In this document: positions 54,870 through 64,000 of the stretch, piece after piece | Numbering within the stretch: position 1 is the first letter of the stretch | How the letters are laid out: the number at the start of each line of letters is the position of its first letter | From: Zoogloea sp. | GTDB lineage: Bacteria > Pseudomonadota > Gammaproteobacteria > Burkholderiales > Rhodocyclaceae | DNA: 64,000 bases | Assembly: GCA_016703645.1 (NCBI GenBank) | Contig: JADJBR010000010.1 | Span: 310,001-374,000, forward strand | Reading direction: 5' to 3' | Notes under the pieces: model-generated | Told to the model about the DNA's origin: nothing | The model's input: only the letters and a program-made list of their open reading frames with translations | Database searches by the model: none | Translations under genes and position numbers: made by a program

Positions 54870-55976
54870 ATGTTTGGTTTCCTCAAGAAAGCCCTGAAAC
54901 CGGGCGATGCGCCCGCGCCAGAGCCCGAAGCCCCGGCAAGCGCCCCAGAGCTCCCCGAGGCTGCTCCGGTGCCGGCTGCCGCGGCCCCGGCGCCTTTGCC
55001 CGTGGCCAGCCCCCCCGAGCCCGAAAAGAAACGCTCCTGGATGGACCGGCTCCGTGCCGGCCTTTCCCGCACCCGGGAGCAGATCGGCGGTGGTCTCGGC
55101 GGCCTGACCAGCCTGTTCAGCCGCCGCAAGATTGATGAAGACCTCCTCGAAGAGCTGGAAACCACGCTGCTGATGGCCGACTGCGGCGTCGAGGCCACCC
55201 AGCACCTGCTCAAGGAGCTGCGCCTGCGCTGGAAGCGTGACAAGCTGGAAACGGCCGACCAGCTGCAGGGCGCGCTGTCGGAGGGCTTGCTGAACATCCT
55301 CGCCCCCCTCGAAAAGCCCCTCGAGATCAATGGCCCCAAGCCCTACATCATCATGATCGCGGGCATCAACGGATCCGGCAAGACCACCTCCATCGGCAAA
55401 CTGGCCAAGCACTTCCAAAGCCAGGGCAAGAGCGTGCTGCTGGCCGCTGGCGACACCTTCCGGGCCGCCGCCCGTGAACAGCTGATGACCTGGGGCGAAC
55501 GCAACGGCGTGTCGGTGATCGCCCAGGAATCCGGCGACCCGGCCGCCGTGGTCTTCGACGCCATCAGCGCCGCCCGCGCCCGCAACATCGACATCGTGCT
55601 GGCCGACACCGCCGGCCGTCTGCCCACCCAGCTACACCTGATGGAGGAAATCGCCAAGGTACGCCGGGTGATCCAGAAGGCCGAACCCAGCGGCCCCCAC
55701 GAGGTGCTGCTGGTGCTCGACGCCAATATCGGCCAGAACGCCATCCAGCAGGTCAAGGCCTTCGATTCGGCCATCGGCGTCACCGGGCTGGTGCTCACCA
55801 AGCTCGACGGCACCGCCAAGGGCGGCGTGGTGGCCGCCATTGCCCGCCAATGCCCCAAGCCCCTGCGCTTCATCGGTGTCGGCGAACAGATCGATGATCT
55901 GCAAGTGTTCCGCGCCAGGGAGTTCGTGGATGCCCTGTTCACCCCAATCGGCGGCAGCACCGACACCCCGGACTGA
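54870..55976 (+). CDS. ftsY: Signal recognition particle receptor FtsY
   Basis: FtsY docks SRP-bound ribosomes at the membrane. The 368-residue product has a short acidic/Pro-Ala-rich A domain, then the NG domain with GINGSGKTTSIGKLA (G1), DTAGRLPT (G3) and TKLDGTAKGG (G4). It is divergent from the M16 pair. A GC-rich hairpin without a T tract (55992-56012) lies past its end, so readthrough into the next operon is possible. Confidence 0.96.
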   Translation: MFGFLKKALKPGDAPAPEPEAPASAPELPEAAPVPAAAAPAPLPVASPPEPEKKRSWMDRLRAGLSRTREQIGGGLGGLTSLFSRRKIDEDLLEELETTLLMADCGVEATQHLLKELRLRWKRDKLETADQLQGALSEGLLNILAPLEKPLEINGPKPYIIMIAGINGSGKTTSIGKLAKHFQSQGKSVLLAAGDTFRAAAREQLMTWGERNGVSVIAQESGDPAAVVFDAISAARARNIDIVLADTAGRLPTQLHLMEEIAKVRRVIQKAEPSGPHEVLLVLDANIGQNAIQQVKAFDSAIGVTGLVLTKLDGTAKGGVVAAIARQCPKPLRFIGVGEQIDDLQVFRAREFVDALFTPIGGSTDTPD

Positions 55977-56135
55977 AGCCTGCCCACCCGGCCGCGGGGC
56001 GATGTCCCGCGGCACCCTACCCTTCCCAGGCATGCCATCCGGGCGTGCATCGCCCCCCCCATTCGCTTATGCTTGCGCAATGAAGGGGCGACACAGCTTT
56101 CAATGCATCCCGCCTCCTCACCAGGAGCGTCGTGG

Positions 56136-58412
56136 ATGTCATCCCCAGTCAGCCCCCCACCCCCCGCATCGACAACAACCCGGTCGCTTCCTCCCGCCCG
56201 CTGGCTGCGCATCGGCCTCCTGCTCTTTGCCGCTCTGACCCTGGCCCTCGGCCTGCAAGCCCTGCTGCTGGTCCACAAGGAGGGCGAGCTACTCAGCGCA
56301 CTCACCGCCTCACGCATCGGCATCGCCGCGGATGAAGTCAACGCCACCTTCAGCCGCGGGGCGACCAACGGCCTGACCCTTTCCGAGTCCCGGGGAATCG
56401 GGCGGATGCTGCCCCGCCTGGCCGCCAACGACAGGGACATTACCGCGATCCACGTCTTCGACCCCCAGGGCCAGGTTCATTTTTCCGTCGGCGCCGATAC
56501 GCCGCCAGCCGTCACCACCGTCACGATGCTCCTGCGCAGCGCAGGCCTCTGGCTCCGCTGCGACGCGGGCCATCCCCTCCTTGTCGGCCAGCCCCTTCGC
56601 GATGAACAGGGCCAGCTCGCCGGCAGCGTGCTGTTCACGGTACAAAGCGACGCCCTTGAAGCCCGGCGGCTCGCCGCCCGGAATGCCACCTTCGAACGCC
56701 TGGGGCTCACCCTCGTGGCCGTCGCGCTGGCCCTCCCGCTGCTTCTCACCGCGGCTGCCCGCCTGGGCCGGCGCTTTGCCCTGCGCCTGAGGCTCCTCGC
56801 GGCTGCCCTGGTACTGGCGTGCACGAGCAGCCTCACCCTCAGCCTGCAGGCCCTGCCCGGTTTTTCCGAACAGCTCGCGCCCGCCCTTGACGCCAAGGCT
56901 GCCGCTCTCGGCCGATTTCTGGCCGGCCGCGTCGACAGTGCGCTCGCCCTGGGCATTCCCTTCGGCGGCCTTGCCGGGGTTGATGAGTATTTCCGCGACA
57001 CCCTCACTCGCCATCCCGAGATCCTCGCCCTGCACCTGGACGGCCCCGGCCGCAGCCTGAGTGCCAGCCGCCCCGGCCCCCCCGGCAACGAGGTCGACAC
57101 GCCCCTTGCCCATCAACCCGGCGCCCACGTCCGCGTGATCACGGCCGGCGACGTGGTGGCGCGGGAGCTGCACAGCCTGGCCCTGGATCTCGCCATCGTG
57201 TTCGTCGTGGCCGTCGTGCTGTTCAACGAAACCCTGGGGGCCATCCTCGCCCGCAACGAACTGGCGCCGGCCAGCAGCCGTGCCAGCCTGGGTCTTGCCC
57301 GGCTGGCGCTGTTCCTGCTGATCCTGTCCGAAGAGCTCACCCGTGCCTTCCTGCCCCTGCACATCGCCAGCCTCGCCCCGGCGGGGGGCACCGCCATCGG
57401 CTTGCCGATCTCCGCCTACATGCTCAGCTTTGCCGTGTTCACCCTTCTTGCCGGGGGCTGGGCCGGGCGCTACGGGGTGGGTCGCCTGTTCGCCGCGGGC
57501 GCGGTGCTTTCAACCGGTGGATTTCTGTGGGCAATGGCGGGAACCGGCTACTGGTCCTTCGTGGCCGCCCGCTGCACATGCGCCGCCGGCTATGCAATGG
57601 GGACGATGGCCATGCAACAGTACTTCCTCGGCGCCGCCGTGGCCGGCGAACGCACCCGCGCCCTCGCCCTCTACGTGGGCGCCCTGCAGACAGCCGCCGT
57701 GTGCGGCTCGGCCATCGGCGGCCTGCTGGCCGAGCGCTTCGGTGCCACCGTGGTATTTGCCGGGGCCGCCGGACTGGGGCTGCTGGCCCTCGTCATCCAG
57801 CGCTTCGACAACAGCCGGCTGGCGCCCCCACCTACACTCGCCGCCCCACTGCGCCCGATGCTCGCCCGCGCACGGATATGGATGCCCATCCTCGGCGCAG
57901 CCTTGCCGGCCAAGCTGGCCCTTGCCGGCTTCCTCTTCTACCTGGTCCCCCTCGCCCTCCATGAGGAAGGCTACGGCAGCAGTGCCACCGGGCGGGCACT
58001 GCTGCTCTACTTCCTTCTCGCCGCGGCCACCAACCCGCTCGGCTCCTGGCTCTCGGACCGCTTTGGATGGAACCGCCGCCTCGTCATCGGCGGTGGGCTT
58101 CTGATCGGTGCCGGTGGCCTGACCGGACTGCTGGGCGGGCCAGGCGCGCTGGTGGTGGGGATCATCACCCTGGGTATCGGCACGGGACTGGGTGCCGCGC
58201 CCCTTCAGTCGATGATCGGGCGTGACGGTGCGCCAGCCCTGGTGCTGCTGCGCACCGGGGAACGTCTGGGGGCCGTGGCCGGCCCGCTGTTTGCGGGCAG
58301 CCTGTTCGGCATGTTGGCATATGGCGGTACGATGGCGGCAATCGGCGCCGTGGTGTTTACGGCCATCCTGGTGCTTGCCCTGTCCTGGAACCAGAAGGAC
58401 TCCACCCCATGA
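56136..58412 (+). CDS. Sensor-MFS fusion transporter
   Basis: The 758-residue membrane protein joins two parts. The N-terminal half has an anchor (about residues 25-46), an extracytoplasmic domain resembling PDC/Cache sensors (ITAIHVFDPQGQVHFSVGAD), two more membrane segments and a second extracytoplasmic domain (ILALHLDGPGRSLSASRPG). The C-terminal half is a major-facilitator transporter with about 11-12 segments, including GGWAGRYGVGRLFAAG and GSWLSDRFGWNRR. I start at ATG 56136, which has AGGAG eight bases upstream; longer starts exist from 56073. Its stop overlaps the next ATG (ATGA). Substrate unknown. Confidence 0.8.
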   Translation: MSSPVSPPPPASTTTRSLPPARWLRIGLLLFAALTLALGLQALLLVHKEGELLSALTASRIGIAADEVNATFSRGATNGLTLSESRGIGRMLPRLAANDRDITAIHVFDPQGQVHFSVGADTPPAVTTVTMLLRSAGLWLRCDAGHPLLVGQPLRDEQGQLAGSVLFTVQSDALEARRLAARNATFERLGLTLVAVALALPLLLTAAARLGRRFALRLRLLAAALVLACTSSLTLSLQALPGFSEQLAPALDAKAAALGRFLAGRVDSALALGIPFGGLAGVDEYFRDTLTRHPEILALHLDGPGRSLSASRPGPPGNEVDTPLAHQPGAHVRVITAGDVVARELHSLALDLAIVFVVAVVLFNETLGAILARNELAPASSRASLGLARLALFLLILSEELTRAFLPLHIASLAPAGGTAIGLPISAYMLSFAVFTLLAGGWAGRYGVGRLFAAGAVLSTGGFLWAMAGTGYWSFVAARCTCAAGYAMGTMAMQQYFLGAAVAGERTRALALYVGALQTAAVCGSAIGGLLAERFGATVVFAGAAGLGLLALVIQRFDNSRLAPPPTLAAPLRPMLARARIWMPILGAALPAKLALAGFLFYLVPLALHEEGYGSSATGRALLLYFLLAAATNPLGSWLSDRFGWNRRLVIGGGLLIGAGGLTGLLGGPGALVVGIITLGIGTGLGAAPLQSMIGRDGAPALVLLRTGERLGAVAGPLFAGSLFGMLAYGGTMAAIGAVVFTAILVLALSWNQKDSTP

Positions 58413-59428
58413 AACCACTGGCTGCACACCTCCTCCTCCTGCTCTCGCTCACGGGCCTGCTCCCCCTGCCGGCCAGGGCCGAAGCGCCCACCCCACGCAT
58501 TGCCATGCTGCTGTTCCGCGGCTGCGAAGAAGCCTGCCGTGGCTTCCAGGGCTACTTCCGCCAGCGGGGCATCGCCGCGGAGTTCATCCTGCGGGATGCA
58601 GCCCAGGACAAGCGGCGGATTCCCGGCCTGGTGGACGAGATCCGTCGTCTGAAACCCGATCTGGTGGTCACCTGGGGCTCCTCCGTCACCCTGGCAGCGG
58701 TCGGCCCCTGGAATGGCGCCGATCCACGCCGCCATATCACCGATCTGCCCGTGATCTTCATGATCGTCTCCGACCCCGTAGCCCTAGGGGTGATCGAAGC
58801 GCCCGACAAGCCCCGCCGCAACGTCACCGGCACCCTCTACCTGCTGCCGATGGAAACCCAGATCAAGGCAGCCCGCAGCTACCTGGATTTCAAACGGGTG
58901 GGCTACATCCTCAACGAGACCGAACCCAACTCGATCACCGCCCGGGACGATCTGCGCAGACTCGCCACAGCCCAGGGCTTCATCCTGGTGGAGCGCAGCC
59001 TGCCGGTGTCCCAGGCCGGCGCGCCGGACGCCCGCGCCATCCCGGGCATCCTCGATGCCTTCAGGCAGGAGAGGGTGGACCTGATCTACCAGGGCCCCGA
59101 CACCTTCCTCAACAGCCGCCGCGAGCAACTCACCGACGGCGCCCTGGCCCTCGGCATCCCGGTCTTCGCCGCCGCCGAAAACCCGGTACAGACCGCCCGC
59201 GCCCTGCTCGGTGTGGTCAACAAATATGAAGACGTGGGCCGCTTCACCGCGGCCCAGGCCCTGCGCATCCTGCGCGACAAGACACCACCCGACCGCGTGC
59301 CCGTGGAATTGCCACGCAACTTCTCCTATCTCATCAACCTGCCGGTGGCCCTGCAACTGGGGCGCTATCCGCCCCTCAAGCTGCTCGACGTGGCCGAGAT
59401 CGTCGGCGTGCAGTCGGAGGATCGCTGA
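58409..59428 (+). CDS. ABC-type periplasmic substrate-binding protein
   Basis: The 339-residue product has a signal peptide (LLLLLSLTGLLPLPARA-EA) and looks like the ABC substrate-binding family of PF04392 type: IAMLLFRGCEEACRGFQGYF, LVVTWGSSVTLAAVGP, DLPVIFMIVSDPVALGVIEA and DLIYQGPDTFLNSRREQLTDGAL. Such proteins often act as sensors for kinases or transporters when no permease is near; none is here. It overlaps the MFS gene by 4 bases and the next gene by 1. Its ligand is unknown; it may present it to the sensor-MFS protein. Confidence 0.8.
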   Translation: MKPLAAHLLLLLSLTGLLPLPARAEAPTPRIAMLLFRGCEEACRGFQGYFRQRGIAAEFILRDAAQDKRRIPGLVDEIRRLKPDLVVTWGSSVTLAAVGPWNGADPRRHITDLPVIFMIVSDPVALGVIEAPDKPRRNVTGTLYLLPMETQIKAARSYLDFKRVGYILNETEPNSITARDDLRRLATAQGFILVERSLPVSQAGAPDARAIPGILDAFRQERVDLIYQGPDTFLNSRREQLTDGALALGIPVFAAAENPVQTARALLGVVNKYEDVGRFTAAQALRILRDKTPPDRVPVELPRNFSYLINLPVALQLGRYPPLKLLDVAEIVGVQSEDR

Positions 59429-60276
59429 TGCGCATCCTGGTGTGCACCAAGCTTGATCTCCACGGTGCCCATTTCGCCAACCGCCTGTTGCCTGCCCTGG
59501 CCGGGCACGAGGTGCTGGGCCTGTGGCTGGCCGACAAGGAGCGTCCGGCCGAAGGCCACATCGAGGCACTCACCGAACTACGCTTCATCGAGCACCAGCT
59601 CCCGGTGGAACTGCTGTTTCCATTGATCGATGCCCTGCCCGTCCAGCTCGCTGAAGGTGCCCGGGACGCCACCTTCGCCGGCCTCGGGCGGCGTCACCGG
59701 ATCCCGGTGGAAACCATCACCGCCTTCGATGCCCCCACCCGCGCCCGCTTCGCTGCCCTGGCGCCGGATCTCGTCATCGTCGCCCGCTTCAGCCATCTCT
59801 TCGACCGCGCCAGCATCACCGTACCGCGCCACGGCATCCTCAATGTCCATCCCGGCCGCCTGCCCGAGCTGGCCGGCCTGCACGCCCCGCTGCGGGCGGT
59901 GATCGGGGGTGCCGACGCCTTTGGCTGCAGCATCCACTGGATCACTCCCGGCATTGATGACGGCCCGCTGCTCGGCGTCATCGACCAGCCCATCGACCTC
60001 GCCGACACCCTCCTCGACCAGACCACCACCCTCTACCCGCTGGCCATCCCCACCCTGCTCACGGTCATCGAGGCCTGCGCCGCCGGGCACCGCCCCCCGG
60101 GCACCCCCCAGGACCTGCGCCTGCGGCGCTATGCCTCGATGCCGGGCGAAGCGCATTTCACGGCCCTGCGCCAATTGGGCATGCGACTTTGGCAACCGGA
60201 TGCGCTGGCCAGCCGGTTGAAGGGCTTCCTCCCCCCCGGCATCGCCTTGCCGCCGCTGCCCGGAGCCCTGCGATGA
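59428..60276 (+). CDS. Formyltransferase-like enzyme
   Basis: The 282-residue product fits the formyl-THF-dependent transferase fold of Fmt, PurN and ArnA. It has a Rossmann start (MRILVCTKLDLHGAHFANRL), then NVHPGRLPELAGLHAP with the catalytic Asn and His, GADAFGCSIHWITPGID and DDGPLLG with the catalytic Asp. So the active-site triad is intact, but the N-terminal and tail sequences differ from all named members. It overlaps the SBP stop by one base (TGATG) and the TIR gene by four. The acceptor substrate is unknown. Confidence 0.8.
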   Translation: MRILVCTKLDLHGAHFANRLLPALAGHEVLGLWLADKERPAEGHIEALTELRFIEHQLPVELLFPLIDALPVQLAEGARDATFAGLGRRHRIPVETITAFDAPTRARFAALAPDLVIVARFSHLFDRASITVPRHGILNVHPGRLPELAGLHAPLRAVIGGADAFGCSIHWITPGIDDGPLLGVIDQPIDLADTLLDQTTTLYPLAIPTLLTVIEACAAGHRPPGTPQDLRLRRYASMPGEAHFTALRQLGMRLWQPDALASRLKGFLPPGIALPPLPGALR

Positions 60277-61760
60277 ATTTTGCCCGGCAGGTATTCATCA
60301 GCTATGCACACCTGGACAACCAGCCCCTCGGCGCCGACCAGACGGGCTGGGTCAGCCTCTTCCACACAACCCTGCAGACCCTGCTCAGCCAACGCCTCGG
60401 CAGCGTCGCGGACATCTGGCGCGACGACAAGCTCCACGGCAACGACGACTTCTCCGATGAAATCCTCGACCAGCTTGCCGGCACCGCGGTGTTCGTCTCC
60501 ATCCTGACCCCCCGCTACCTCAAATCGGATTGGTGCAAGAAGGAAATCCGCAGCTTCTGCCAGCAGGCCGAAGCCGGGCACAGCCTGACGGTGGGCAACA
60601 AGGCCCGCGTCATCAAGGTGCTCAAGTTGCCGGTCGATGAAGGCTCGGAGCTGCCGCCCGTCGTCGGACGCCTCCTTGGCTACGACTTCTACGAGGTGGA
60701 CGAGGAGCATGTGCCCCATGAGCTTGACCCGGCCTACGGCGACCGACCGCGCCAGGCCTTCCTGCGCAAGGCCAACAAACTCGCCTGGGATCTCGCCGCC
60801 CAGCTCACCGAACTCCAGCGCCCGCATCCGGATGCCGGAAAGGCCGACGACGCGCCCGGCACCAGGCCCGCCGTGTTCCTGGCCGAATGCAGCCGCGACC
60901 GCCGGGAGGCCCGCGACAGCATCGCCAGCGAGCTGGCCTGTTGCGGCTTCCGCGTGCTGCCCGAAACGCGCCTGCCCGACGACGAGGACGAATACCTCAC
61001 GGCGGTAGGCGCGCTCCTCGAAACCTGCGTGCTGTCTGTCCATCTGGTCGGCAGCGGCCACGGCCGGGTGCCCGACGGCGACCGCCAACAATCCGTCGTC
61101 GTACTGCAGAACGAACTCGCTGCAGCCCGCAGCCGCAGCCACGGACTGCGCCGGGTGATCTGGCTGCCCGCCGGCATCACCTCGGCCCAACCCGCCCAGC
61201 AGGCCTTCCTCGACGCCCTCCAGACCGACGCCGCGCTGCAGTTCGGGGCAGATCTGGTCAGCGGCGACCTGGAAACCGCCAAGTCCGCGATCCATACGGC
61301 CCTCAAGCCCCCCGCCCCATTGCCCTCCCCGTCCCTCGACGGGGCGGCCCGGGTCCACCTGGTATGCGATGCCAACGACAGAAAGTCGGTCGTCCCCCTC
61401 ATCAAGCAGCTCCGCAGCCGCGGTCTTGAAGTCAGCCTGCCGGCCTTCGTCGGCGATGCAGCCCAGGTCCGCGAGACCAACCGTCAGCTCGCCCTCGACT
61501 GCGACGCCATCCTGCTTTACTACGGCGCCGGCGATGAAGCCTGGAAGTTCCACCAGCAGAACGATCTGCGCAAGCTCCTCGGCAGCCCCCGCGGCCGCCC
61601 CCTCAAGGCCAGCCTGACCCTTCTTGCCGCCCCCCCCAGCGACGACAAGGACGTGCTGCAGGCCCTTGCCGAACCCGACGTGCTCGACGCCCTCGACGGC
61701 ATCCGTGACGCCACCCTCGCCCCCCTTTATGCGGCCCTCGGCCTGTCGGAGACGCCATGA
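60273..61760 (+). CDS. TIR-domain protein with two further TIR-like segments
   Basis: The 495-residue cytoplasmic protein starts with a TIR domain (residues 5-130): VFISYAHLD, the WRDDKLHGNDDF loop and a WCKKE motif whose Glu91 is where TIR NADases have their catalytic glutamate. Residues about 199-345 (AVFLAECSRDRREARDSIA to ETCVLSVHLVGSGHG) and about 359-455 (VHLVCDANDRKSVVPLIKQL, CDAILLYYGAGDEAW) repeat the TIR-like pattern without that glutamate motif. I infer one active and two degenerate modules. The ATG overlaps the formyltransferase stop and the stop overlaps the next ATG (both ATGA). NADase activity is unproven. Confidence 0.85.
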   Translation: MNFARQVFISYAHLDNQPLGADQTGWVSLFHTTLQTLLSQRLGSVADIWRDDKLHGNDDFSDEILDQLAGTAVFVSILTPRYLKSDWCKKEIRSFCQQAEAGHSLTVGNKARVIKVLKLPVDEGSELPPVVGRLLGYDFYEVDEEHVPHELDPAYGDRPRQAFLRKANKLAWDLAAQLTELQRPHPDAGKADDAPGTRPAVFLAECSRDRREARDSIASELACCGFRVLPETRLPDDEDEYLTAVGALLETCVLSVHLVGSGHGRVPDGDRQQSVVVLQNELAAARSRSHGLRRVIWLPAGITSAQPAQQAFLDALQTDAALQFGADLVSGDLETAKSAIHTALKPPAPLPSPSLDGAARVHLVCDANDRKSVVPLIKQLRSRGLEVSLPAFVGDAAQVRETNRQLALDCDAILLYYGAGDEAWKFHQQNDLRKLLGSPRGRPLKASLTLLAAPPSDDKDVLQALAEPDVLDALDGIRDATLAPLYAALGLSETP

Positions 61761-64000
61761 GCGATCTGCCTGCCAGCCCCTACCCCGGCATCCGCCCCTT
61801 CCGCGAAGAAGAGGAATACCTGTTCTTCGGCCGCGAAGCCCAGGTGGACGCCATGGTGGACACTCTCGCCCGCGGGCGCTTCCTGGCCGTCATCGGCAGC
61901 TCCGGCTGCGGCAAGTCATCCCTCGTCAATTGCGGCTTGCGCCCGGCCCTGCACCGGGGCCTCCTCACCCGCGCCGGCAGCGCCTGGCGGATGGCAAGCT
62001 GCCGGCCCGGTGGCCACCCCCTGCGGGCGCTGGCTGAAGCCCTCGCCGCCCCCGGCGCCCTGCATCGCGAGATGGATGACGGCCCCTTCACCCTCGCGGA
62101 GTTCATCGAAACCACCCTTGCCATGAGCCGCCGGGGCCTGGTCGAAACCTGGCAGCAGGCGCGCCTGCCCGAAGGCACCCAGCTATTGGTGATCGTGGAC
62201 CAGTTCGAGGAACTGTTCCGCTACCGCCAGCTTGCCGACGCCAGCCCCGCCGACGAGGACCCGGCCACCGCCTTCGTCAACCTGCTGCTCCAGGCCCGCA
62301 ACGAGGATGTTCCGATCCACGTCGTGCTGACCATGCGCTCGGACTTCCTGGGCGACTGCGCCCGCTTCGCCGGCCTTCCAGAAGCCATCAATGGCGGGCA
62401 ATACCTGGTGCCACGGATGAGCCGGGACGACCGCCGCGCCGCCATCCTCGGCCCTGCCCGGGTATGCGGCGCCGACATCGAGCCCACCCTGCTCACCCGC
62501 CTCGTCAATGACGTGGGTGACGATCCGGACCAGCTCTCCCTCCTCCAGCACGCCCTCGCCCGCTGCTGGGCCCACTGGCAGACAAGTGGCGAGCCCAGCC
62601 CCATCGAAGCCCGTCACTACGATGCAGTGGGCACGCTGGCCCATGCCCTCAACCAGCACGCCGAAGAGATCTTCACCCTCCTTCCCGCCGCCCACCAGTT
62701 ACGCTGCGCCGCCACCTTCCGGGCCCTCACCGACACCAGTACCGACGCCCGGGGCATCCGCCGCCCAACCCGCTTCAGTGAGCTGGACGCCATCACCGCC
62801 GGCTGCGCCGAGGCCGCCGCGGCGCCCCTGCAGGAGGTCCTCGCCCCCTTCAGAGCCCCCGGCGCCGCCTTTCTCATGCCGCCTGCCGGCGAAGGACTTG
62901 CCGCCGACACGGTGATCGATATCTCCCACGAAAGCCTGATGCGCATCTGGGACCGCTTGCGGGACTGGGGCGAGCGGGAGGCCGATGCCGCCCGCATGCT
63001 GCGCCGTCTGGCCGACGCCGCCGAGCTCCACGCTGGCGGCCAGGCCAGCCTGTGGCGCGACCCGGAGCTCCAGCTAGCCCTCGACTGGCGCGCCCGCAAC
63101 CACCTCACGCCAGCCTGGGCGCGCCAGTACGGGCGCACTCTCGCCCCGGCCCTGGCTTTTCTCGACGCCAGCACCAGGGCCCGTGACGAAGCCCTCGCCA
63201 CGGAAGCCGCCCGCCTCGAAGCAGCGCGCGCGGCCGAAGCCGAGCGCATCCGAAGCCGCCGCGTCGGGCGTCTCACCCTCGCTGCCGTCATTGCGGCAAC
63301 CCTGGTGGCCGGCGCCACGGGCGTGCTCTGGCAACGGGCCGAACATGCCTCAAAAATTGCCGTATCGCGGCAGTTTGCCGCCCAGTCGGCGGCCGAGCTC
63401 ACCAGTGGAAACCTGCCCAGGGCGCTGCAGCTGGCCGCAGCCGGCTACACTCACCAAGCCAGTTTCGAAGCCCGCGACAGCCTCCTCGCAGCCCTGTCCG
63501 ACGCCCCCCTGGACTGGCGCCACGCCGGCCAGCGGGGTGTGCTGGCCCTCGCCGTCGGCCCGGAGGGCATGCTCGCCAGCGGCGGGCGGGATGGCAGCAT
63601 CCGCTTCTTCTCCGACACCACGGCCGCCGTCCCGGCGCATCAGGAACAGGTGCTTGCCCTGGCATTCAGCCCCGACGGAAGCCTCCTCGCCTCCGCAGGC
63701 ATCGACCACCGGGTGATCCTGTGGCGGAGCGCTGATCGACAGGTAGTGGCAAGCCTCGATGACCACGAAGGCCCGGTGCTGGCCCTGGCCTGGAGCCCGG
63801 ATGGCAAGACCCTCGCCAGCGCTGGCGCCGACCGCCGCATCGTGCTGCGTGACGGCAGCACCGGCGCCCCCGTCGGCCCCGCGTTGACCGAGCACACCGA
63901 TACCGTCACCGGCCTCGCCTTCAGCCCCGACGGCAAGACCCTCGCCTCCACCGGCTACGATGGCAACCTGATTCTGCGGACACTTGGCGACGCCCGGCCC
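61757..64000 (+). CDS. nSTAND NTPase with WD40 repeats, membrane anchored (3' cut)
   Basis: The first 748 codons of a gene cut by the right edge. The N-terminus PYPGIRPFREEEEYLFFGRE, Walker A GSSGCGKSS (residues 47-55) and Walker B LVIVDQFEELF (144-154) mark an nSTAND1-type NTPase. After a helical region one membrane segment follows (about 504-524, LTLAAVIAATLVAGATGVLW), then WD40 repeats from about residue 595, with VLALAFSPDGSLLASAG and two similar units before the edge. STAND proteins oligomerise on ligand sensing, and WD40 parts usually sense. It overlaps the TIR gene by four bases. Confidence 0.9.
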   Translation, partial: MSDLPASPYPGIRPFREEEEYLFFGREAQVDAMVDTLARGRFLAVIGSSGCGKSSLVNCGLRPALHRGLLTRAGSAWRMASCRPGGHPLRALAEALAAPGALHREMDDGPFTLAEFIETTLAMSRRGLVETWQQARLPEGTQLLVIVDQFEELFRYRQLADASPADEDPATAFVNLLLQARNEDVPIHVVLTMRSDFLGDCARFAGLPEAINGGQYLVPRMSRDDRRAAILGPARVCGADIEPTLLTRLVNDVGDDPDQLSLLQHALARCWAHWQTSGEPSPIEARHYDAVGTLAHALNQHAEEIFTLLPAAHQLRCAATFRALTDTSTDARGIRRPTRFSELDAITAGCAEAAAAPLQEVLAPFRAPGAAFLMPPAGEGLAADTVIDISHESLMRIWDRLRDWGEREADAARMLRRLADAAELHAGGQASLWRDPELQLALDWRARNHLTPAWARQYGRTLAPALAFLDASTRARDEALATEAARLEAARAAEAERIRSRRVGRLTLAAVIAATLVAGATGVLWQRAEHASKIAVSRQFAAQSAAELTSGNLPRALQLAAAGYTHQASFEARDSLLAALSDAPLDWRHAGQRGVLALAVGPEGMLASGGRDGSIRFFSDTTAAVPAHQEQVLALAFSPDGSLLASAGIDHRVILWRSADRQVVASLDDHEGPVLALAWSPDGKTLASAGADRRIVLRDGSTGAPVGPALTEHTDTVTGLAFSPDGKTLASTGYDGNLILRTLGDARP

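What the first reader, a model, noticed from the sequence alone, without database searches (positions are those of the whole stretch)
56136..64000. Five-gene coupled cassette joining transport/sensing genes to a TIR and an nSTAND-WD40 protein
Sensor-MFS, periplasmic binding protein, formyltransferase, TIR protein and membrane nSTAND-WD40 are chained by ATGA, TGATG, ATGA and ATGA overlaps, so they are translated as a unit. TIR and STAND proteins are known parts of bacterial immunity and cell-death signalling. I know no described system in which they are coupled to an MFS sensor, an SBP and a formyltransferase. It may be a defence system, or a ligand-triggered stress response. It lies straight after ftsY.
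Basis: partly seen in the sequence, partly recalled or inferred. Interest (0 to 1): 0.75.

Follow-up and report, generated by a model that had tools for sequence, protein, structure and literature searches.

The report
TIR–STAND pair fronting an injection machine
The five overlapping genes are real, but in Zoogloea bacteria they are the front end of a 27-kilobase island that also carries a phage-tail-like injection machine just past the window edge, which puts an immune-type TIR–STAND gene pair directly beside a molecular syringe.

Summary
The five genes and four overlaps are confirmed; gene E ends at window-equivalent 65365. They are not a general five-gene system but modules: A-B(-C), sensor/MFS, binding protein and formyltransferase; D-E, a TIR protein and membrane nSTAND1-WD40; and, 130 bp past E, an 18-gene contractile injection system (CIS). 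D-E lacks A-B-C in 9 of 16 judgeable relatives. A-B lacks D-E in 10 of 11 other-genus loci mapped. The full order was seen only in Zoogloea-type loci. There A-E plus CIS is one gain/loss unit: two congeners without it have ftsY next to wecB, a third by eye. All 7 of 249 family genomes with a strong sheath match have full-length D, but 6 are one genus. A conserved promoter-like block, unique in the genome, separates E from the sheath gene. Best reading: D-E is a ligand-gated NADase death switch acting as the death arm of the CIS. Linkage is shown; function is inferred. I found no described CIS with a TIR-STAND module.

The parts
56136..58412 (+). Gene A: membrane protein with two extracytoplasmic sensor-like segments (about 47-188 and 239-344) fused to an MFS transporter half
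   Evidence: MFS_1; model, mean pLDDT 62; sCache_3_2 in 3 of 12 homologues; hydropathy
58409..59428 (+). Gene B: binding protein, ABC_sub_bind/TrpX-like, signal peptide by eye; next to A in every mapped locus that has A
59428..60276 (+). Gene C: formyltransferase-fold protein; an optional member of the A-B module
60273..61760 (+). Gene D: TIR protein, TIR domain about residues 5-140 with Glu91 in SxWCxxE invariant in 17 of 17 aligned, followed by two further alpha/beta (TIR-like) domains
61757..64000 (+). Gene E: nSTAND1 NTPase (Walker A at residue 47), one TM (503-521), C-terminal WD40 repeats; continues to window-equivalent 65365
56044..56135 (+). Candidate promoter region of A-E (conserved CGTGC...TATNCT...ATGANG blocks and ribosome-binding site) in 8 aligned loci
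   Evidence: conservation only; the generic promoter scan found none
54870..55976 (+). ftsY: left boundary of the island; in congeners without the island it lies next to wecB

Best explanation
The five genes are the regulatory and effector front of one 27-kb Zoogloea island (between ftsY and wecB, G000:C10:365977-393041) whose other half encodes a contractile injection system (CIS). Proposed mechanism: A and B sense an extracytoplasmic ligand or stress (inferred from the Cache, MFS and binding-protein parts). The signal reaches E, a membrane-anchored nSTAND1 protein whose WD40 repeats act as sensor and brake. On activation E oligomerises, as APAF-1 does, and brings together its partner D. D's TIR domain then cleaves NAD+ (catalytic Glu position conserved), killing or arresting the cell or making a signal nucleotide. 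In Zoogloea this switch serves as the death or release arm of the CIS, in which no lysis gene was recognised and which appears to have its own promoter. Shown: gene content, overlaps, modular history, presence or absence as one unit, conserved catalytic-position and Walker motifs, conserved promoter-like block. Inferred: ligand sensing, NADase activity, cell death, and the functional link between D-E and the CIS.
For: D-E is a near-obligate pair: E follows D in 16 of 17 loci; the 17th (L034) has a broken D beside a transposase-like gene. Outside Zoogloea-type loci the D-E overlap is -4 in 10 of 12 pairs mapped. Glu91 is invariant in 17 of 17. Walker A and at least one TM segment are present in 8 of 8 E proteins examined. 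Fold matches include RUN1, RPP1, SARM1 and PdTIR. In two loci scanned, D-E lies near conflict-type genes: CHAT/TPR-S (L032) and patatin/TPR-S (L036). One unit: D and sheath lie 3.4-3.8 kb apart on one strand in 6 of 6 genus genomes with full-length D; A, full-length D and sheath are jointly absent from G332, G455 and G503, where ftsY is followed by wecB (G332 by eye). All 7 of 249 family genomes with a strong sheath match have D. Precedent for CIS-linked death: Streptomyces (PMC10066040, abstract and passages).
Against: D-E occurs without this CIS: G321 (L023) and G483 have D-E but no strong sheath match, and in G377 the two are on different contigs. The D-sheath association rests essentially on one genus, so the Fisher value (3e-12) is not phylogenetically corrected. 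The CIS has a separate promoter-like block, which argues against simple co-transcription. 'No lysis gene' is weak: 10 of the 18 CIS products have no Pfam match at all, and the peptidoglycan-binding protein could act on the wall. The Foldseek list for D also holds many unrelated alpha/beta enzymes above or among the TIR hits, and the TIR part of the model has pLDDT of about 50-80; the A model is poor overall. No activity was measured.
Confidence: 0.38

Rival explanations
1. D-E is a stand-alone antiphage (abortive infection) module that happens to share an island with the CIS; A-B supplies an extra input, and the CIS is an unrelated neighbour.
For: D-E occurs without A-B-C in 9 of 16 judgeable loci and near conflict-type genes in the two loci scanned, L032 and L036. 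DUF4062 TIR-like NADases act in antiphage defence, and human TEP1 joins one to a NACHT and WD40 repeats (PMC13174449, passages). The CIS has its own promoter-like block.
Against: Presence or absence of the whole island as one unit and invariant order in the genus. D has no PADLOC match. The Zoogloea site lies between ftsY and sugar-nucleotide genes (by eye), not among defence genes.
Confidence: 0.27
2. A-E is the signal-transduction unit of the CIS: ligand binding at A-B activates E, and the TIR product acts as a second messenger that triggers CIS expression, membrane docking or firing rather than death.
For: A-B recurs next to other membrane signalling proteins: Ser/Thr kinases with dCache and HAMP in L101, L102 and L103. 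The CIS promoter-like block holds a short dyad, CTG...CAG in 8 of 8 rows.
Against: No transcription factor or nucleotide receptor was recognised in the island. L023/G321 has A-B-D-E without a CIS.
Confidence: 0.17
3. D-E is a guard that watches CIS or phage-tail proteins (its own misfiring machine or incoming tails) through the WD40 repeats and kills the cell when it sees them.
For: WD40/STAND proteins sense proteins by analogy with APAF-1; KpSwz was assayed with a phage portal as its trigger (PMC13174449, passages). Tight linkage to tail genes.
Against: Most D-E loci have no tail genes in reach, and E's C-terminal part varies: no Pfam WD40 at 1e-5 in 5 of 7 relatives tested.
Confidence: 0.08

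Closest known systems
TIR / STAND-NTPase conflict systems (nSTAND1 clade; PMC8195603, PMC7159879, passages)
   Same: TIR effector plus STAND NTPase switch plus repeat sensor; in two other loci near CHAT, patatin and TPR-S genes
   Different: Effector and switch are split into two overlapping genes, E is membrane-anchored, and in Zoogloea the pair is joined to a sensor/MFS module and a CIS
Swarozyc / TEP1 (DUF4062 TIR-like NADases; PMC13174449, passages)
   Same: TIR-like NADase logic; TEP1 combines a TIR-like domain, a NACHT and WD40
   Different: D's match to DUF4062 is below the curated cut-off (15 against 24.7 bits); its main domain is TIR_2; two polypeptides here
Cytoplasmic CIS of Streptomyces (PMC10066040, abstract and passages) and thylakoid CIS of Anabaena (PMC8894136, passages)
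   Same: Chromosomal phage-tail-like injection machine without a capsid; Streptomyces CIS mediates stress-induced cell death
   Different: The Zoogloea sheath profile has no PDB sequence match at 0.001; hub-like and spike are separate genes; linked to TIR-STAND, while term searches of the two main texts found no TIR
FxsC TIR-like protein (NCBIfam NF040588)
   Same: D residues 8-144 match its model (3e-16)
   Different: 60 bits against a cut-off of 130

Membership tests
TIR-STAND (NLR-like) conflict module | TIR domain with catalytic Glu in the SxWCxxE motif (motif recalled) | tested here: met
   TIR_2 2.1e-10; Glu91 invariant in 17 of 17; TIR structures among the fold matches, with unrelated folds too
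TIR-STAND (NLR-like) conflict module | STAND NTPase with intact Walker A | tested here: met
   nSTAND1 1.4e-91; Walker A in 8 of 8 examined
TIR-STAND (NLR-like) conflict module | C-terminal repeat sensor | tested here: met
   WD40 in own E, L023 and L026; not found in 5 of 7 other E proteins tested
TIR-STAND (NLR-like) conflict module | NADase activity, cell death or phage protection | not testable with these tools
   needs experiment
Named antiphage systems in PADLOC v2 | profile match of D | tested here: not met
   0 families for A, B, C, D and sheath; E has three low-coverage matches
Swarozyc (DUF4062) | DUF4062 domain above cut-off | tested here: not met
   15 bits against 24.7
eCIS (Afp/PVC type) | sheath, gp25, baseplate J and gpV-type spike genes in one cluster | tested here: met
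   (gp25 is below its Pfam cut-off but matches phrog_975 at 2.8e-18); spike matches Afp8, Pvc8 and All3320 chains
eCIS (Afp/PVC type) | AAA+ ATPase (Afp15; recalled) in the cluster | tested here: not met
   no ATPase family in 18 of 18 cluster products, one scanned as 243 of 258 aa; three of them at 1e-5 only
eCIS (Afp/PVC type) | fused hub-spike Afp8 (recalled) | tested here: not met
   hub-like 345 aa and spike 212 aa are separate genes; the Afp8 chain matched is 529 aa
eCIS (Afp/PVC type) | eCIS-specific Afp12, 13, 14 or 16 | not tested
   no profiles at hand; criterion seen in PMC8213781 (passage)
Prophage | capsid, portal, terminase, integrase genes in the cluster | tested here: not met
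   no such Pfam match in the 18 products (10 have no match at all); one weak PHROG match named major head protein for the tube-like protein, 2.5e-4; no sheath relative in phage records or, for close relatives, IMG/VR
Type VI secretion system | T6SS membrane-complex and sheath families in the cluster | tested here: not met
   only generic spike/VgrG similarity in the cluster; the rest of the genome was not searched

The most novel reading that the evidence does not exclude
An NLR-like TIR-STAND switch, gated by a Cache/MFS-binding-protein receptor, controls the deployment of a contractile injection system: immune-type death signalling and a molecular syringe act as one machine, travelling as a single island.
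Probability: 0.3. Interest if true: 0.85.

Novelty: new variant of a known kind. Interest (0 to 1): 0.62.

Why it matters
How cell-associated injection machines are triggered, and how a cell commits to dying while using one, is open; the Streptomyces CIS shows that a CIS can serve regulated death. A conserved island that places a membrane-anchored TIR-STAND switch and a likely receptor directly in front of a CIS gives a directly testable candidate for that trigger, with natural island-free congeners as controls; Zoogloea is culturable and floc-forming (recalled). It also shows A-B as an exchangeable input module, next to kinases in some genera and to TIR-STAND in others.

Tried and rejected
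Rejected: a self-contained five-gene defence system. Rejected: prophage (no capsid, terminase or integrase family among the 18 products; no sheath relative in phage records, nor, for close relatives, in IMG/VR). Not supported: plasmid-borne module (two weak TIR hits in plasmids). Led nowhere: PDB searches with the sheath and D profiles (none) and with the tube-like protein (none); generic promoter scan (0 found, 0.5 expected); D in viral contigs (none); FxsC literature (nothing relevant listed); the sheath outside the family (only the own genome strong among 321 class genomes, five weak). Foldseek for A showed only MFS proteins in the 50 rows listed apart from no Cache hit, so the sensor fold rests on sCache_3_2 in 3 of 12 homologues and predicted secondary structure.

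Rows left out of counts: L028 from the upstream count (its contig starts 197 bp before D), so 16 of 17 judged; four weak sheath genomes (G308, G484, G525, G537; best E 1e-14 to 4e-17) and 12 weak D genomes among 249, by a cut at 1e-100. Of the 21 other-genus genomes with A I mapped 11.

Full report
Observation. The window is bases 310001-374000 of contig C10 of a 4.99-Mb genome. After ftsY the five genes are present with overlaps of 4, 1, 4 and 4 nt, and E is cut by the window end; in the genome it is 1202 aa and stops at window-equivalent 65365. The organism is inferred to be Zoogloea: the closest named loci are Zoogloea sp. MAG.512 (L020) and 1C4 (L025), D 84-85% identical, and LCSB751 (L033), with the same gene order around ftsY. 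L021, L022 and L024 are unnamed Proteobacteria MAGs with that same order; L024's contig has the length of a same-genus contig, G523:C6. I call these Zoogloea-type loci.

What lies beyond. 130 bp after E, on the same strand, begins an 18-gene cluster (window-equivalent 65496-82946): sheath (Phage_sheath_1, 5.3e-11), a 130-aa tube-like protein, a VgrG/hub-like protein (weak), a DNA_circ_N/hub protein, a peptidoglycan-binding protein, a gpV-type spike, a PAAR-like protein by eye, gp25, baseplate J (5.2e-23), a gpI-like protein by position, two fibres (one with Peptidase_S74, 4.4e-14) and others; then wecB and dTDP-sugar genes by eye on the other strand. No capsid, terminase, integrase, lysis or ATPase family was recognised among the 18 products, but 10 of the 18 have no Pfam match at all, and the tube-like protein has a weak PHROG match named major head protein (2.5e-4) besides a minor tail one (2.4e-5). 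The spike resembles chains from Afp, PVC, Anabaena and T6SS; baseplate J is nearest to phage baseplates and to CD1371. I read it as a tail-derived contractile injection system that is not a canonical eCIS.

Modularity. With three D orthologues as query, 17 loci were found in the 84,980-species collection. E (NTPase part) follows D in 16 of 17; L034 has D broken off near a transposase-like gene. Upstream, A-B-C is present in 6, A-B without C in 1 (L023, which matches G321), none in 9, and one cannot be judged. The sheath is present in 6, all with the full order. In the family sample (249 genomes) full-length D (E<1e-100) is in 9, this sheath (E<1e-100) in 7, A (E<=1e-20) in 27; weaker matches exist in 12 more genomes for D and 4 more for the sheath. 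All 7 sheath genomes have full-length D; D occurs without it in G321 and G483; in G377 the two are on separate short contigs. Six of the seven are one genus, so the Fisher value (3e-12) overstates independence.

A-B history. In ten loci without D-E, A and B are adjacent; C is adjacent in L098 and L099 and nearby in L100 and L109. In L101 a Ser/Thr kinase with dCache and HAMP follows A-B directly, and L104 has a gene of the same length with a like start there (not scanned); in L102 and L103 such a kinase is divergent to A. Trees of A and B place L097 (A-B-D-E) as sister to the Zoogloea-type set (88/92 for A, 96/92 for B), with A-B-C-only loci next: A-B appears to have joined D-E once. Several long branches were flagged.

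One island. Three congeners lack A, full-length D and sheath (G332, G455, G503). In G503 and G455 ftsY is followed within about 80 bp by wecB; in G332 wecB was not found by search, but the contig end about 350 bp after ftsY reads as wecB's tail by eye. The 27 kb is thus present or absent as one unit. G503 has instead a distant D/E-like pair elsewhere (26% and 33% identity; L112).

Regulation. Between E and the sheath gene, 19 of 36 columns just after E's stop are invariant in 8 loci against 16 of 105 in the rest (Fisher 2.5e-5); the 8 loci are closely related. The block begins with TTGACA overlapping E's stop codon, has TANNCT 16 nt on, and a short dyad (CTG...CAG in 8 rows, CTGA-GTAA-TCAG in 4). 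The pattern has one match in the genome with up to 3 mismatches and none in the reversed control. A generic scan did not call it. I read it as a promoter of the CIS genes; this is unproven.

Protein evidence. D: AlphaFold2 mean pLDDT 76 (TIR part about 50-80, later domains mostly 80-94); Foldseek hits include RUN1, RPP1, SARM1 and PdTIR, but also many unrelated alpha/beta enzymes. NCBIfam gives FxsC_Nterm at 3e-16, below its cut-off. E: nSTAND1, one TM, WD40; no WD40 recognised at 1e-5 in 5 of 7 relatives tested. A: mean pLDDT 62, with the two sensor-like segments at about 80-90; MFS hits only in the rows listed; sCache_3_2 in 3 of 12 homologues. Neighbours of D-E outside Zoogloea were scanned in two loci only: L032 (CHAT, TPR-S, DUF7379 above cut-off; DUF4062 and VMAP-M20 below cut-off) and L036 (patatin, TPR-S). 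The Nitrosomonas-type loci lie among housekeeping genes by eye.

Literature. Seen: search listings and passages of PMC10907252, PMC13174449, PMC8213781, PMC7159879, PMC10066040, PMC8894136, PMC12998442 and PMC8195603; in PMC12210884 none of the five terms occurred, so no passage was seen. None of the passages describes a TIR-STAND pair with a CIS. The search contractile injection system + TIR domain + antiphage returned one review, seen only in the listing; Zoogloea + contractile + phage tail returned none. Only open-licence papers are searched, so absence is weak.

Verdict. The natural unit in Zoogloea is a receptor plus TIR-STAND plus CIS island. The linkage is solid; the functional coupling is the open and interesting question.

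Noticed in passing
L004:11363-11400 (window-equivalent 65362-65399): Conserved TTGACA-N16-TANNCT block whose first hexamer contains E's stop codon; one match in the genome.
   Followed up: partly
L112:7670-11379: Same-genus genome G503, which lacks the island, carries a distant D/E-like overlapping pair (26% and 33% identity) elsewhere.
   Followed up: partly
L101:5249-12132: The A-B pair lies directly upstream of a membrane Ser/Thr kinase (Pkinase-dCache-HAMP) and an alpha/beta hydrolase; L104 has the same layout by length and start.
   Followed up: partly
L099:2272-9638: A-B-C without TIR-STAND lies near an AAA/NACHT-TPR gene and another weak AAA gene.
   Followed up: no
L032:2281-14064: In a Rubrivivax MAG, D-E follows a CHAT/TPR-S/DUF7379 protein; a protein with sub-threshold VMAP-M20 and DUF4062 matches lies next to that.
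   Followed up: partly
L034:9992-12305: In a Nitrosomonas MAG chromosome D is broken off and followed by transposase-like genes (by eye); no E was found.
   Followed up: no
L033:11488-14718: E of Zoogloea LCSB751 is called as 1076 aa against 1173-1203 in seven other Zoogloea-type loci, suggesting a change in WD40 repeat number.
   Followed up: no
L106:8695-11553, L016:9142-11307, L035:11524-14079: E relatives keep nSTAND1 and a TM segment, but no WD40 is recognised in their C-terminal part: the sensor end seems to be swapped.
   Followed up: partly
L107/L108 and L111 (G539, G523): These CIS clusters hold one more gene (158 aa) between the gpI-like and first fibre genes than the window genome does.
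   Followed up: no
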